NCBI GenBank assembly: GCA_018304145.1
Contig: JAGVWU010000003.1
Span: 1-36,291, forward strand
Length of the DNA stretch: 36,291 nt
DNA from: Candidatus Pacearchaeota archaeon
GTDB taxonomy: Archaea; Nanobdellota; Nanobdellia; Pacearchaeales; GW2011-AR1
Direction: 5' to 3'
This document shows positions 4,591-36,291 of the stretch, piece by piece (the first letter of the stretch is position 1; each line of letters begins with the position of its first letter). A program made the position numbers and the translations under genes. The notes beneath the pieces are model-generated. The model was not told where the DNA came from. It worked only from the letters and a program-made list of their open reading frames with translations, and did not search any database.

Positions 4591-5286
4591 CTAGTGTTTT
4601 ATGGCATTTGGATATAATTTTTTTAATTTGTTTCTTCCAAGTACAATTCCAGAAGGGTCTCTTACATCTTCAACTAAAAACTCATGAATAGACCAAGTCA
4701 TCATAGGAGCCCATTTTTTTGATATAACTGAAGTATCATATTCAAAGTGTATAACTTCTCTAGGAACTCCAAATTTCTCTATCCCATATCTGACCCACAT
4801 ATTAACATTTCCAGGATTCATTCCAGAACACAGTATATGTACAGCATTGTTTATCTTATCTTTTTTTCCATAGATATAATAAATTAATTCATCAACAGTT
4901 TTTTCTTCAGCATTCATCGCAGTATTTATATAGTTTATCTTAACTTTGTCAGTAATTTCAATAATAGGTATAGAATCCATATCCGTTATATCTAATACAA
5001 TATCAATTTTATATCTTTTTAAAATATCTATATATTCTTCTCTTTTTTCAGGCAATTTAATCTCTTTATGAATAAAGACATAATTCAGTGCTTTGTGGTC
5101 AATATAAAGGTTTGATAAAACCTTTCTATTTTTGTCCAATAATATTAACTTGTTAAATAAATTCCTGTGATGAATAAGATTATGTAGAAAAGCATTTGCA
5201 ACTCCTCCAGATGCTCCAAGAACTAATAAATTAGGTTTCTTTATCAACTTCCCGCCTCTTTCTTTATATTTATAATAAATTTGCAT
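4591..5286 (-). CDS. Homospermidine synthase-like protein, NAD(P)-binding part
   Basis: 231 residues with a Rossmann glycine motif, GASGGVANAFLHN, near residue 25. The segment SGMNPGNVNMWVRYG corresponds to the CGANPG region of bacterial homospermidine synthases. It ends ...NAIKH-TAG and the frame then continues into the C-terminal part. Homospermidine synthase makes homospermidine from putrescine with NAD+; a saccharopine dehydrogenase-like relative is the alternative. The true start may be the TTG at about 5244, preceded by AGAGGCGGGA, because a TATA-like TTTATATA overlaps the annotated ATG. Confidence 0.68.
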   Translation of the reverse strand: MQIYYKYKERGGKLIKKPNLLVLGASGGVANAFLHNLIHHRNLFNKLILLDKNRKVLSNLYIDHKALNYVFIHKEIKLPEKREEYIDILKRYKIDIVLDITDMDSIPIIEITDKVKINYINTAMNAEEKTVDELIYYIYGKKDKINNAVHILCSGMNPGNVNMWVRYGIEKFGVPREVIHFEYDTSVISKKWAPMMTWSIHEFLVEDVRDPSGIVLGRNKLKKLYPNAIKH

Positions 5287-10447: not shown

Positions 10448-10490
10448 ATAGCAAAGGACGCTGATATTTTTCCAAATGCGCCTTTGCTAT
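10448..10490 (+). terminator. Strong hairpin after pdaD
   Basis: ATAGCAAAGGACGC (10448-10461) pairs with GCGCCTTTGCTAT (10478-10490), 13 bp with one bulged A. It begins 4 nt after the stop and is much more GC-rich than its surroundings. It is followed directly by the repeated 54-nt hairpin element. Confidence 0.5.
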
Positions 10491-10543
10491 CAAGGGAAAG
10501 ACATAAAAAATAAGTGAAATATTTATGTCTTTCACTATAATTG
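10490..10543 (+). ncRNA. Repeated 54-nt 3'-UTR hairpin element, copy A
   Basis: Begins TCAAGGGAAA and ends TTTCACTATAATTG. GAAAGACATAAA (10496-10507) pairs perfectly with TTTATGTCTTTC (10522-10533). Copy B after the rubrerythrin gene (16030-16083) has identical flanks at identical 40-nt spacing, with a G-C to A-T compensatory change in the stem. It probably acts in the pdaD transcript as a 3'-end, processing or regulatory element. Confidence 0.5.
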
Positions 10544-10638
10544 TTAATACACAAAAATTGAGATGTTATGTTGCGAGATGATTAAAAAAATGTTTCAGAA
10601 GCCATATCTTATTGAGTTATTATATTAATTAAAAATAC

Positions 10639-10881
10639 CTATCTGATTCTAAAAATAATAATCAAAAAAGTTATCGTCATCCAAGAAAGAGTTATTATAA
10701 TCGGAATTTTATACTGAAAATCAACAAAAAATAAAAAAATTCCAATCAAAAAACAACAAATAATCAATATTTTTAATCTTTTGTTCCAGGCCTTAATTTC
10801 TTCTTTGCAAGTTTTAGCAAGGAATAATCCAACAGGGATTCCAAAAAGTATTATTATTAAATAAATCAGCTCTTTAATCAT
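10639..10881 (-). CDS. Small membrane protein, three predicted helices
   Basis: 80 residues with hydrophobic segments at about 5-24, 37-54 and 59-78, and a short charged loop (KEEIKAWNKRLK) after the first. It resembles no characterised family that I can name. It stands as a single gene between the pdaD 3' region and a divergent gene at 10942. Confidence 0.55.
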   Translation of the reverse strand: MIKELIYLIIILFGIPVGLFLAKTCKEEIKAWNKRLKILIICCFLIGIFLFFVDFQYKIPIIITLSWMTITFLIIIFRIR

Positions 10882-19437: not shown

Positions 19438-19461
19438 AGTATATCCTTTAGGATATATTCT
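19438..19461 (+). terminator. Hairpin after the small membrane protein
   Basis: AGTATATCC (19438-19446), loop TTTA, GGATATATTCT (19451-19461), followed by TTTT. Terminator-like. It shares 15 nt, inverted, with the enolase/ATPase hairpin. Confidence 0.45.
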
Positions 19462-19470
19462 TTTACATAG

Positions 19471-19502
19471 AGAATTCGGGAGTTCGATCCTCTCTAGGTC
19501 CA
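19471..19502 (+). tRNA. tRNA 3'-end remnant (T-arm plus acceptor strand)
   Basis: GGGAG (19478-19482), TTCGATC, CTCTC (19490-19494) form a complete T-arm with canonical T54 T55 C56 G57 A58 and C61. TAGGTCC (19495-19501) and A at 19502 fit acceptor positions 66-73. The matching 5' strand (GGACCTA) is absent upstream and no D-arm or anticodon arm is seen. This is therefore either a truncated tRNA, an integration-site remnant, or the 3' half of a split tRNA. No function is established. Confidence 0.55.
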
Positions 19503-34614: not shown

Positions 34615-35154
34615 TTAGAATTTTGAATGCTTTTTTAAAAATCTTTTATTTAGATAATAAGCCAACCCTATCACAACTATCAATCCTATTAAAGAAAGTG
34701 TGAATTTTAGCCAATCATCAGCAAATTTCCAGTAATCAACAACCCCGAATATTATTATCCCTATTCCTCCAAACATTAATCCAGCTCCAACAAATTCAAG
34801 TCCAAACACCAAACCACCAATAGCAATAATAATTATTCCCAAAGGCAAGGCAATTAAAAATACTCCTCTTGAATATTTTTTCTGGGCATCCTCAAATTCT
34901 TTCTGGCATTTTATATAGCTGTATTCACAATAACCCCCTTCAGCTGGAATTGGTTTTCCTCCTGCAACTGCTGGCGGATAAGTGTTATTTATCCATCTTC
35001 CTCCTGCCTCAATACATTCGCTTGGAAGATTAATTTGCGGGCAATAATCATTATATTCAGGAGATTTTCCGTAAAAGGTGTTTATTCCATAAATTCCAAC
35101 TGAAACTGTTAGTATAAATATCGCAATTCCAAAAACCAGATTTTTTACATTCAT
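34615..35154 (-). CDS. Membrane protein with an extracytoplasmic Cys loop
   Basis: 179 residues. The first helix (about 7-27) leads to an outer loop of about 70 residues with four cysteines and a Trp-rich RWINNTYPP (one N-x-T sequon). Three further hydrophobic helices (about 97-115, 119-140, 148-166) and a basic tail follow. No family recognised. CCTTTATATATG-like sequence just upstream suggests the promoter. Confidence 0.6.
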   Translation of the reverse strand: MNVKNLVFGIAIFILTVSVGIYGINTFYGKSPEYNDYCPQINLPSECIEAGGRWINNTYPPAVAGGKPIPAEGGYCEYSYIKCQKEFEDAQKKYSRGVFLIALPLGIIIIAIGGLVFGLEFVGAGLMFGGIGIIIFGVVDYWKFADDWLKFTLSLIGLIVVIGLAYYLNKRFLKKHSKF

Positions 35155-35271
35155 ATTATTATAAGGGATTTTACCTTTATATATGTTATTATCTTTCTTA
35201 AATAAATTTGCAAAAATATTTATTATATATCAATCAGCATGTTGTGAAATAATTAGATAATTTGTTTTCTC

Positions 35272-35291: not shown

Positions 35292-35382
35292 CCTGTTTTT
35301 ATCATAAAAATCCATACATAACTTACCCTAGGATTAATTAATGAATAAATTTATAATCCTCATAATTCTTGAATATTTATAT

Positions 35383-35473
35383 GCCTCCATCGCTCAGTGG
35401 TAGAAAAATTTTGCATTTGCAAAATAGAATTAACTTACTACAGATGCGAAATTTTTGAGCAACGGATTGCTAA
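35383..35473 (+). tRNA. tRNA 5' half (anticodon GCT) interrupted in the D-stem
   Basis: If 35403-35456 is removed, the remaining bases read as tRNA positions 1-38: acceptor GCCTCCA, T8, D-stem GCTC, A14, G18 G19, A21, D-stem GAGC (perfect), A26, anticodon strand ACGGA, loop TTGCTAA with T33, anticodon GCT (serine) and purine 37. The 54-nt insert has 13-nt inverted ends. No 3' half (TCCGT, T-arm, TGGAGGC) follows in the window. A TATA-like AATTTATAATCC lies about 30 nt upstream. It may be a split-tRNA half or a decayed gene. Confidence 0.5.
35404..35456 (+). repeat. Inverted-end insert inside the tRNA 5' half
   Basis: AAAAATTTTGCAT (35404-35416) is complementary to ATGCGAAATTTTT (35444-35456) except for one G-U. 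GA occurs at both junctions, compatible with either an intron whose exact ends are ambiguous or a small insertion with a 2-bp duplication. Confidence 0.45.
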
Positions 35474-35600
35474 TGATATATAAAAAATTTATATATTATT
35501 AAGATTGAGTAGGAATAACGCATATAGCTAATCAGAGTATTGTATTTTTAACACCAATAAGTTTTAAATACTGCTACTACTTATAATAATCAATTAACAC

Positions 35601-35626
35601 CATGGGGATAGGAAACTAACCCCATG
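35601..35626 (+). promoter_or_regulatory. GC-rich leader hairpin of NYN gene 2
   Basis: CATGGGG (35601-35607), 12-nt loop, CCCCATG (35620-35626), ending 10 nt before the ATG. TTTTAAATA (35562-35570) would start transcription near 35595, so the hairpin occupies most of the roughly 43-nt leader. No Shine-Dalgarno sequence stands between hairpin and ATG. Confidence 0.5.
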
Positions 35627-35636
35627 ATTCCTTAAA

Positions 35637-36179
35637 ATGTATTCTAAAAATAAAAAGGTAATAATTTATATTGACGGCAGCAATTTTTATTTTTCTATTA
35701 AAAAGACATTTAATTGCAAAGTGAATATTGAAGGATTTTGCAAGAAACTTTCAGGCAATAATGACCTTGTTGGTATTAATTATTATATCTCTCCAGTAGG
35801 AGAAAGTAATCCTGATATGTATACTGAACAACAAAAGTTTTTTGAGAAACTGAAAAAGATTGATAAATTAAAGATTGTATTTGGCAGGTTAGAAAAACAT
35901 AAAAAAGATGGAAAAACATTTTATGTTGAGAAAGCAACAGACATAAATATTGCACAAGACTTAATTTTTGATGCTATTGATAATAGTTATGACAAGGCAT
36001 ATTTAATATCCAATGATGGAGATTTTTCAGGAGTTATTCATTCTATAATAAAGAGATTTAATAAGGAAATTGTTTATGTTGCAATTGGAAACAATAAATC
36101 TATCTCTTACCATCTAAAAAATGTTGCTTCCAAGACAATTAGGATTACCAAAGATTTTATCAATGATGTTTGTATTTAG
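35637..36179 (+). CDS. NYN-domain protein (LabA/DUF88-like putative RNase) 2
   Basis: 180 residues, a compact NYN domain: VIIYIDGSNFYFSIKK at the N-terminus gives the IDGSN motif, KATDINIAQDLIFDA the central Asp cluster, and KAYLISNDGDFSGVI the final SNDGDF motif. All expected acidic residues are present, so it is likely an active metal-dependent ribonuclease. It is clearly closer to the canonical family than the NYN protein at 29589-30251 and not its recent duplicate. Confidence 0.87.
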   Translation: MYSKNKKVIIYIDGSNFYFSIKKTFNCKVNIEGFCKKLSGNNDLVGINYYISPVGESNPDMYTEQQKFFEKLKKIDKLKIVFGRLEKHKKDGKTFYVEKATDINIAQDLIFDAIDNSYDKAYLISNDGDFSGVIHSIIKRFNKEIVYVAIGNNKSISYHLKNVASKTIRITKDFINDVCI

Positions 36180-36291
36180 ATAAGAAATGTAGTGTAGTAT
36201 CCCGATATTACTTCGTTTTAGATTAGCCTGATTATCTTTTACCATTTTTTATAAATTTATTAATTTAAATCTTAATCCTATCCATACAGAA
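36180..36291. other. Window end without supported gene
   Basis: Contains a weak hairpin around GTAGTAT/GATATTAC after the NYN gene and an AT-rich promoter-like stretch. A minus-strand ORF starting near 36239 runs antisense through the NYN gene and is probably spurious. Confidence 0.3.

What the first reader, a model, noticed from the sequence alone, without database searches (positions are those of the whole stretch)
35383..35500. tRNA 5' half: D-stem interrupted by a 54-nt hairpin, sequence ends at the anticodon loop
Seen: excision of 35403-35456 yields a flawless tRNA 5' half through position 38, including a perfect GCTC/GAGC D-stem and loop TTGCTAA. The break is at 37/38, the place where archaeal tRNAs are split or carry introns. 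Right after it comes a 13-bp AT hairpin (35472-35500) and no 3' half. Known: split, trans-spliced tRNAs occur in Nanoarchaeum, and D-arm introns occur in some archaea. Inference: a split-tRNA gene that also carries an intron, or a decaying tRNA hit by small hairpin insertions.
Basis: partly seen in the sequence, partly recalled or inferred. Interest (0 to 1): 0.82.

Follow-up and report, generated by a model that had tools for sequence, protein, structure and literature searches.

The report
Displaced 5' half of a tRNA-Ser gene
A serine tRNA gene in an uncultured archaeon has been cut exactly at its anticodon loop, most likely by a small inserted DNA element carrying a nuclease-like gene; close relatives keep the intact gene, so this looks like an insertion scar and not a split tRNA that is stitched together as RNA.

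Summary
Window 35383-35402 plus 35457-35473 is a perfect 37-nt 5' half of tRNA-Ser(GCU), interrupted in the D-loop by a 54-nt hairpin and ending at the anticodon loop TTGCTAA. A same-genus genome (G013) has the intact gene with the same 37 letters and the same upstream gene (81% identity). In G013 the tRNA also has a downstream flank that, in the window's own genome, follows a 3' half on contig C22. Ten 5'-only or 3'-only fragments of tRNA-Ser(GCU) in six genomes all break at the 7-nt loop TTGCTAA, with unrelated DNA beyond it. Several lie in tandem next to an intact copy, separated by 0.1-3.4 kb segments carrying NYN, AbiE, HicAB or WYL genes. This is the signature of site-specific integration into a tRNA anticodon loop, known in archaea for SSV1, pTN3 and Caldiarchaeum. 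The split-tRNA reading fails: no cognate 3' half (TGGAGGC), no trailer-leader pairing, no bulge-helix-bulge. No intact tRNA-Ser(GCU) exists in this 86.6%-complete assembly, so rescue by trans-splicing cannot be wholly excluded. The recombinase was not identified; none lies in the segments examined. New member of a known kind, with an unusual integrase-free, two-polarity array in relatives.

The parts
34615..35154 (-). Gene upstream of the tRNA locus; its DNA is 81% identical to the gene upstream of the intact tRNA-Ser(GCT) in G013
   Evidence: BLAST, window 34640-35196 = L158:2466-3022; alignment
35350..35369 (+). Probable tRNA promoter (TTTATAATCCTCATAATTCT), 26-33 bases before the tRNA start; 19 of 20 letters shared with G013
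   Evidence: read; G013 copy TTTATAATCCTTATAATTCT read
35383..35402 (+). tRNA-Ser(GCU) positions 1-20: acceptor 5' strand, D-stem 5' strand, D-loop
   Evidence: identical to G013 L158:3895-3914
35403..35456 (+). 54-nt hairpin insert in the D-loop, 16-bp stem; absent from all intact relatives; similar hairpins interrupt a second tRNA-Ser 3' fragment in G013, G010 and own C22
   Evidence: fold; only copy of its pattern in the genome; similar hairpins aligned
35457..35473 (+). Rest of the 5' half: D-stem 3' strand, anticodon stem 5' strand, anticodon loop
35467..35473 (+). Proposed 7-bp crossover core TTGCTAA (anticodon loop 32-38), shared exactly by all truncated relatives
35471..35501 (+). AT hairpin directly after the core, first part of the inserted DNA; a similar stretch (29 nt, 90%) lies upstream of the third 3' half in G010
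35580..35639 (+). Leader of the NYN gene with a CCATGGGG/CCCCATG hairpin; 98% identical over 60 nt in G014
   Evidence: BLAST
35637..36179 (+). NYN-domain (PIN-like) predicted RNase gene, first gene of the inserted segment
   Evidence: Pfam NYN 1.1e-18; orthologue in G014 76% identical
36193..36291 (+). Start of a repeat present at the ends of four contigs (C36, C70, C25, C6), which ends the assembly here

Best explanation
This is the displaced, non-functional 5' half of the chromosomal tRNA-Ser(GCU) gene. The ancestral gene was intact, as in G013. A site-specific recombinase exchanged strands at the 7-bp anticodon loop TTGCTAA and inserted a small element here whose first gene is an NYN nuclease. 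That left promoter, host 5' half and TTGCTAA in front of the element (the window), and the old downstream flank with a host-type 3' half at the far end (own contig C22). In such events the element normally supplies a new half so that one intact tRNA survives; here that copy is presumably in the assembly gap. Freed from selection, the 5' half then took a 54-nt hairpin in its D-loop. Shown: the break at the loop, the intact homologue, shared flanks, and the same breakpoint in ten fragments. Inferred: a tyrosine recombinase did it, the missing intact copy, and the late hairpin insertion.
For: Intact gene with 37/37 identical 5' letters in G013 and the same upstream gene. C22's 3' half shares G013's and G010's downstream flank. 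Six 5'-only fragments (window, G014, G017 x2, G005 x2) and four 3'-only (G010 x3, G009) all diverge exactly outside TTGCTAA. G010 has an intact tRNA followed by three displaced 3' halves; G017 and G005 have displaced 5' halves upstream of an intact one. With a tRNA-Ser(GCT) covariance model, intact genes score 84-105 bits, C22 53, and displaced fragments 38 or less. The same kind of 3' fragment array exists at tRNA-Val(TAC) in the own genome. Every genome of the genus searched has PF00589 recombinases, two in the own genome within about 1 kb of tRNA genes. IntSSV1 cuts at the borders of the anticodon loop and pTN3-like integrases use the 5' half (PMC8371274).
Against: No recombinase gene was seen in any segment between fragments, and the window holds only 0.8 kb of the insert. 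C22 may not be the partner end of this very event: its acceptor strand TGAAGGT is not the G013-type TGGAGGC. An intact replacement tRNA-Ser(GCT) was not found in the assembly.
Confidence: 0.82

Rival explanations
1. A true split tRNA: the 5' half is transcribed from its own promoter, the 54-nt D-arm insert is spliced out, and the product is joined in trans to the C22 3' half.
For: Promoter retained. Anticodon stem ACGGA/TCCGT pairs 5 of 5, and acceptor GCCTCCA/TGAAGGT pairs 6 of 7 including one G-U (read). No intact tRNA-Ser(GCT) in the assembly. Canonical-position introns do occur in this genome.
Against: Trailer-leader pairing at shuffled level and no BHB for the insert. C22 carries its own, different 5' part directly upstream, a T-stem mismatch and an acceptor mismatch. 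Intact gene in relatives; truncated copies in relatives coexist with intact genes. Assembly 86.6% complete and broken by repeats on both sides.
Confidence: 0.04
2. The gene was broken by homologous or illegitimate rearrangement between tRNA-Ser copies or repeats, without a dedicated site-specific element; the neighbouring NYN gene is incidental.
For: Contig ends here are repeats. C22 has gyrase genes close upstream of its chimera. Integrases are known to drive inversions at tRNA genes (PMC5495485). No integrase seen.
Against: Ten breakpoints at exactly the same 7 nt in six genomes with unrelated outer DNA; tandem displaced halves with cargo genes.
Confidence: 0.1
3. The truncated 5' half is kept as a small regulatory RNA or as an active attachment site with its two hairpins.
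For: Promoter and all 37 tRNA letters preserved; strong hairpins.
Against: Hairpin and trailer are not conserved in the other truncated halves; no sign of a shared RNA beyond TTGCTAA.
Confidence: 0.04

Closest known systems
tRNA-Thr(GGU) disruption in Caldiarchaeum subterraneum (Sugahara et al. 2012, PMC3293823)
   Same: A 5' tRNA fragment with its original upstream DNA, an inserted segment, and a reconstituted tRNA downstream; proposed to come from integration of a mobile element
   Different: Break at position 24-27 there, at the anticodon loop here; there the insert encodes a putative recombinase; here repeated use across a genus and both polarities
pTN3-like integrases of Thermococcales (PMC8371274, PMC5495485)
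   Same: Attachment site is the 5' half of a tRNA gene, so 5' halves are displaced and the restored tRNA gets its promoter from the element side
   Different: tRNA-Leu there, with a plasmid-encoded integrase; here short segments with no integrase found
SSV1-type integration at the anticodon loop (PMC8371274)
   Same: Overlap region is the anticodon loop; 3' halves displaced, as in G010 and at tRNA-Val here
   Different: Integrase gene is split by integration there; no integrase fragments seen here
Split tRNAs of Nanoarchaeum, Caldivirga and Desulfurococcales (PMC3218864)
   Same: A 5' half ending near 37/38
   Different: They have a cognate 3' half, a 13-14 bp trailer-leader helix and a BHB, none found here

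Membership tests
Split (trans-spliced) tRNA gene | Cognate 3' half elsewhere that completes acceptor and anticodon stems | tested here: not met
   No TGGAGGC 3' half; C22 half pairs 6/7 and 5/5 with a T-stem mismatch and follows its own 5' part
Split (trans-spliced) tRNA gene | Complementary trailer and leader forming BHB plus helix | tested here: not met
   Duplex -9.0 kcal/mol versus shuffled mean -9.06, 237 of 500 as good
Split (trans-spliced) tRNA gene | Joined mature tRNA observed | not testable with these tools
   No RNA data
Archaeal tRNA intron (D-arm) | Bulge-helix-bulge at the exon-intron borders | tested here: not met
   No border position gave a 4-bp central helix with flanking helices
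tRNA remnant at the attachment site of a tyrosine-recombinase element | Breakpoint at a 7-bp core flanked by the anticodon-stem inverted repeat | tested here: met
   TTGCTAA in all ten fragments
tRNA remnant at the attachment site of a tyrosine-recombinase element | Uninterrupted site in a close relative with the same flank | tested here: met
   G013
tRNA remnant at the attachment site of a tyrosine-recombinase element | Displaced halves in tandem with a restored intact tRNA | tested here: met
   In G010, G017 and G005; not visible in the window's own assembly
tRNA remnant at the attachment site of a tyrosine-recombinase element | Recombinase gene in the element | tested here: inconclusive
   None in the segments read, but the window holds only 0.8 kb of the insert and integrase-less integrated elements are documented; recombinases are elsewhere in the genomes
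Integron cassette array | IntI integrase and attC sites | not tested
   Only general PF00589 hits were listed; attC sites were not searched for

The most novel reading that the evidence does not exclude
In this archaeal genus the anticodon loop of tRNA-Ser(GCU) (and of tRNA-Val) serves as a general landing site for small integrase-free cassettes of toxin-antitoxin and defence genes. Each carries its own tRNA half, 5' or 3', stacks in tandem, and is moved in trans by a resident recombinase: an integron-like platform built on a tRNA gene.
Probability: 0.25. Interest if true: 0.65.

Novelty: new member of a known kind. Interest (0 to 1): 0.4.

Why it matters
It gives an origin for an apparent split tRNA gene in a reduced archaeal genome: a half gene with promoter and perfect stems can be an integration scar. 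It also supplies, within one genus, the intact site, both polarities of displaced halves and tandem arrays, which makes the idea that mobile elements create tRNA halves directly testable. If the cassettes move in trans, it would be a compact system for shuffling defence genes in archaea.

Tried and rejected
Looked for a TGGAGGC 3' half in the own genome (none). Tested C22 as trans-splicing partner (no pairing above chance). Tested a D-arm BHB intron (not formed). The lack of tRNA-Ser and tRNA-Ala in the Rfam scan first looked like wholesale tRNA splitting; a T-arm model recovered a tRNA-Ser(TGA) with a 3-bp D-stem that the Rfam search had not listed, so that idea was dropped; tRNA-Ala was not pursued further. 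Searched for an intact tRNA-Ser(GCT) with patterns and a dedicated model: none in the assembly. Looked for a recombinase next to the fragments: none. Looked for further copies of the 54-nt hairpin in the genome: none. First thought the G014 5' half was syntenic (upstream of NYN); on checking strands it lies 36 nt downstream of the NYN stop, so G014 shows the other border of an NYN segment.

Full report
WHAT IS THERE. Window 35383-35473 holds the 5' half of a tRNA-Ser(GCU): acceptor strand GCCTCCA, D-stem GCTC/GAGC, anticodon stem strand ACGGA and loop TTGCTAA. It is interrupted at 35403-35456 by a 54-nt hairpin (folds). Directly after the loop comes an AT-rich hairpin, then an NYN-domain gene (35637-36179; Pfam 1.1e-18), then the contig end. 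A probable TATA box lies 26-33 bases upstream. ARAGORN and Rfam find no tRNA in the window.

THE OWN GENOME. The window is a whole contig (C36) of a 1.15 Mb, 70-contig, 86.6%-complete assembly. An NYN relative at 63% identity is in a named Pacearchaeota genome, so the host is probably a DPANN archaeon of that kind (inference). No 3' half ending TGGAGGC exists. A covariance model built from 13 intact relatives finds in this genome only a tRNA-Ser(TGA) at 64 bits and a defective tRNA-Ser(GCT)-like gene on C22 at 53 bits, followed by other tRNAs at 49 bits or less; intact relatives score 84-105 bits. The C22 gene is a chimera. Its 5' part (GCCCAGT...CGAGG) differs by 2 of 30 letters from the 5' part of G002's tRNA-Ser(GCT). 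Its 3' part (TCCGT...TGAAGGT) pairs with that 5' part at only 3 of 7 acceptor and 2 of 5 anticodon-stem positions. Its TCCGT instead matches the window's ACGGA.

RELATIVES. G013 has the intact gene, with 37 of 37 letters identical to the window's 5' half after removing the insert. The gene upstream of the window's half is upstream of that tRNA in G013 (81% over about 560 bases). The sequence following C22's 3' half matches the sequence downstream of G013's tRNA and of the third 3' half in G010. So the window and C22 carry the left and right flanks of what is one intact locus in G013.

THE BREAKPOINT. Among 18 genomes of the genus, 13 intact contiguous genes were modelled, plus one with a canonical-position intron in G010. 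Ten further copies are halves: 5'-only in the window, G014, G017 (two) and G005 (two); 3'-only in G010 (three) and G009. Every one diverges exactly at the borders of TTGCTAA. In G010 the intact tRNA is followed by three complete 3' halves separated by about 1.9, 1.65 and 3.4 kb. In G017 and G005 the displaced pieces are 5' halves upstream of the intact gene; G017's outer copy repeats the promoter region of the intact one. Genes between or beside the pieces include NYN, WYL, AbiEi/AbiEii, SWIM, GNAT, AAA_14-DUF4143, HicAB and HEPN-nucleotidyltransferase. No recombinase is among them, although PF00589 genes occur in all 18 genomes. In the own genome, tRNA-Val(TAC) shows the same kind of array of 3' fragments with an NYN gene (C70; another fragment at window 19451-19502).

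MECHANISM. The overlap region of IntSSV1 is the anticodon loop, tRNA anticodon arms resemble the core site of tyrosine recombinases, and pTN3-like integrases use the 5' half (PMC8371274). A 5' tRNA fragment, an inserted segment and a reconstituted tRNA were described in Caldiarchaeum (PMC3293823). The window fits: host promoter and 5' half up to the crossover loop, then inserted DNA. The enzyme, the size of the insert and the replacement tRNA are inferred, not seen; the contig ends in a repeat shared by four contig ends.

THE 54-NT HAIRPIN. It is absent from all intact relatives. Similar hairpins of about the same size (stems starting AAAAATTTT or alike) interrupt a second, displaced tRNA-Ser 3' fragment at the T-stem/acceptor junction in G013, G010 and C22. 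No BHB can be drawn at its borders in the window. The simplest reading is an insertion tolerated in a dead fragment; why these palindromes recur in tRNA pieces is open.

SPLIT tRNA? Against: no cognate half, no trailer-leader pairing, intact relatives, and truncated halves coexisting with intact genes. For: no intact gene in the assembly, and the window half could pair with C22's 3' half at 6/7 and 5/5. Incomplete assembly with breaks on both sides is the likelier reason. Probability given 0.04.

NOVELTY. tRNA remnants at integration sites, tandem integration and integrase-less elements are all documented in archaea (PMC8371274, PMC3293823). What I did not find described, in a limited literature search, is one tRNA gene serving both polarities with such small integrase-free segments in a DPANN genus. 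That is kept as the novel case, not the main claim.

Noticed in passing
window 19451-19502; own contig C70 (L101) 779-862, 2232-2256, 4999-5069: Copies of the 3' part of tRNA-Val(TAC): one intact gene and several displaced 3' fragments, some starting at the anticodon loop, with an NYN gene and a small gene pair between them
   Followed up: partly
window 36193-36291; C70:5936-6033, C25:9389-9486, C6:1-98: An identical 98-nt sequence (GTAGTATCCCGATATTACTTCG...) ends four contigs: the edge of an unassembled multi-copy repeat
   Followed up: partly
window 35580-35639; L151:5538-5597; L043:3960-4000: The NYN gene has a leader hairpin (CCATGGGG...CCCCATG); the leader is 98% identical over 60 nt between G000 and G014 while the wider NYN region is 80%, and a similar hairpin precedes the gene in L043; possible autoregulation
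   Followed up: no
L158:4058-4154; L150:10963-11048; L160:342-273: Downstream of tRNA-Ser(GCT) pieces lies a second tRNA-Ser 3' fragment with a palindromic T-loop region and a hairpin of about 50 nt between T-stem and acceptor strand, conserved in three genomes with sequence divergence
   Followed up: partly
L150:3903-4009: G010's intact tRNA-Ser(GCT) has an intron of about 26 nt at the canonical position, in the very loop used as the insertion site; it could protect the gene from further insertion
   Followed up: no
own C46:14498-14577 (L094/L233): tRNA-Ser(TGA) with a 3-bp D-stem, not listed by the Rfam RF00005 search of the own genome
   Followed up: partly
sequence upstream of tRNA-Gln, Glu, Val and Lys genes in L014, L019, L020, L002 and of G013's tRNA-Ser: Recurrent short hairpin leaders (AAGTTCATT...AATGAA-) directly before the mature tRNA start
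   Followed up: no
L150:7118-7420 and 10480-10788; L149:5104-5367: Small conserved ORF without Pfam match (KERPKWPMQRLKGMYFAMHCWKCKKF...) that sits immediately before the tRNA-fragment border in two genomes, in two cases next to a WYL gene
   Followed up: partly
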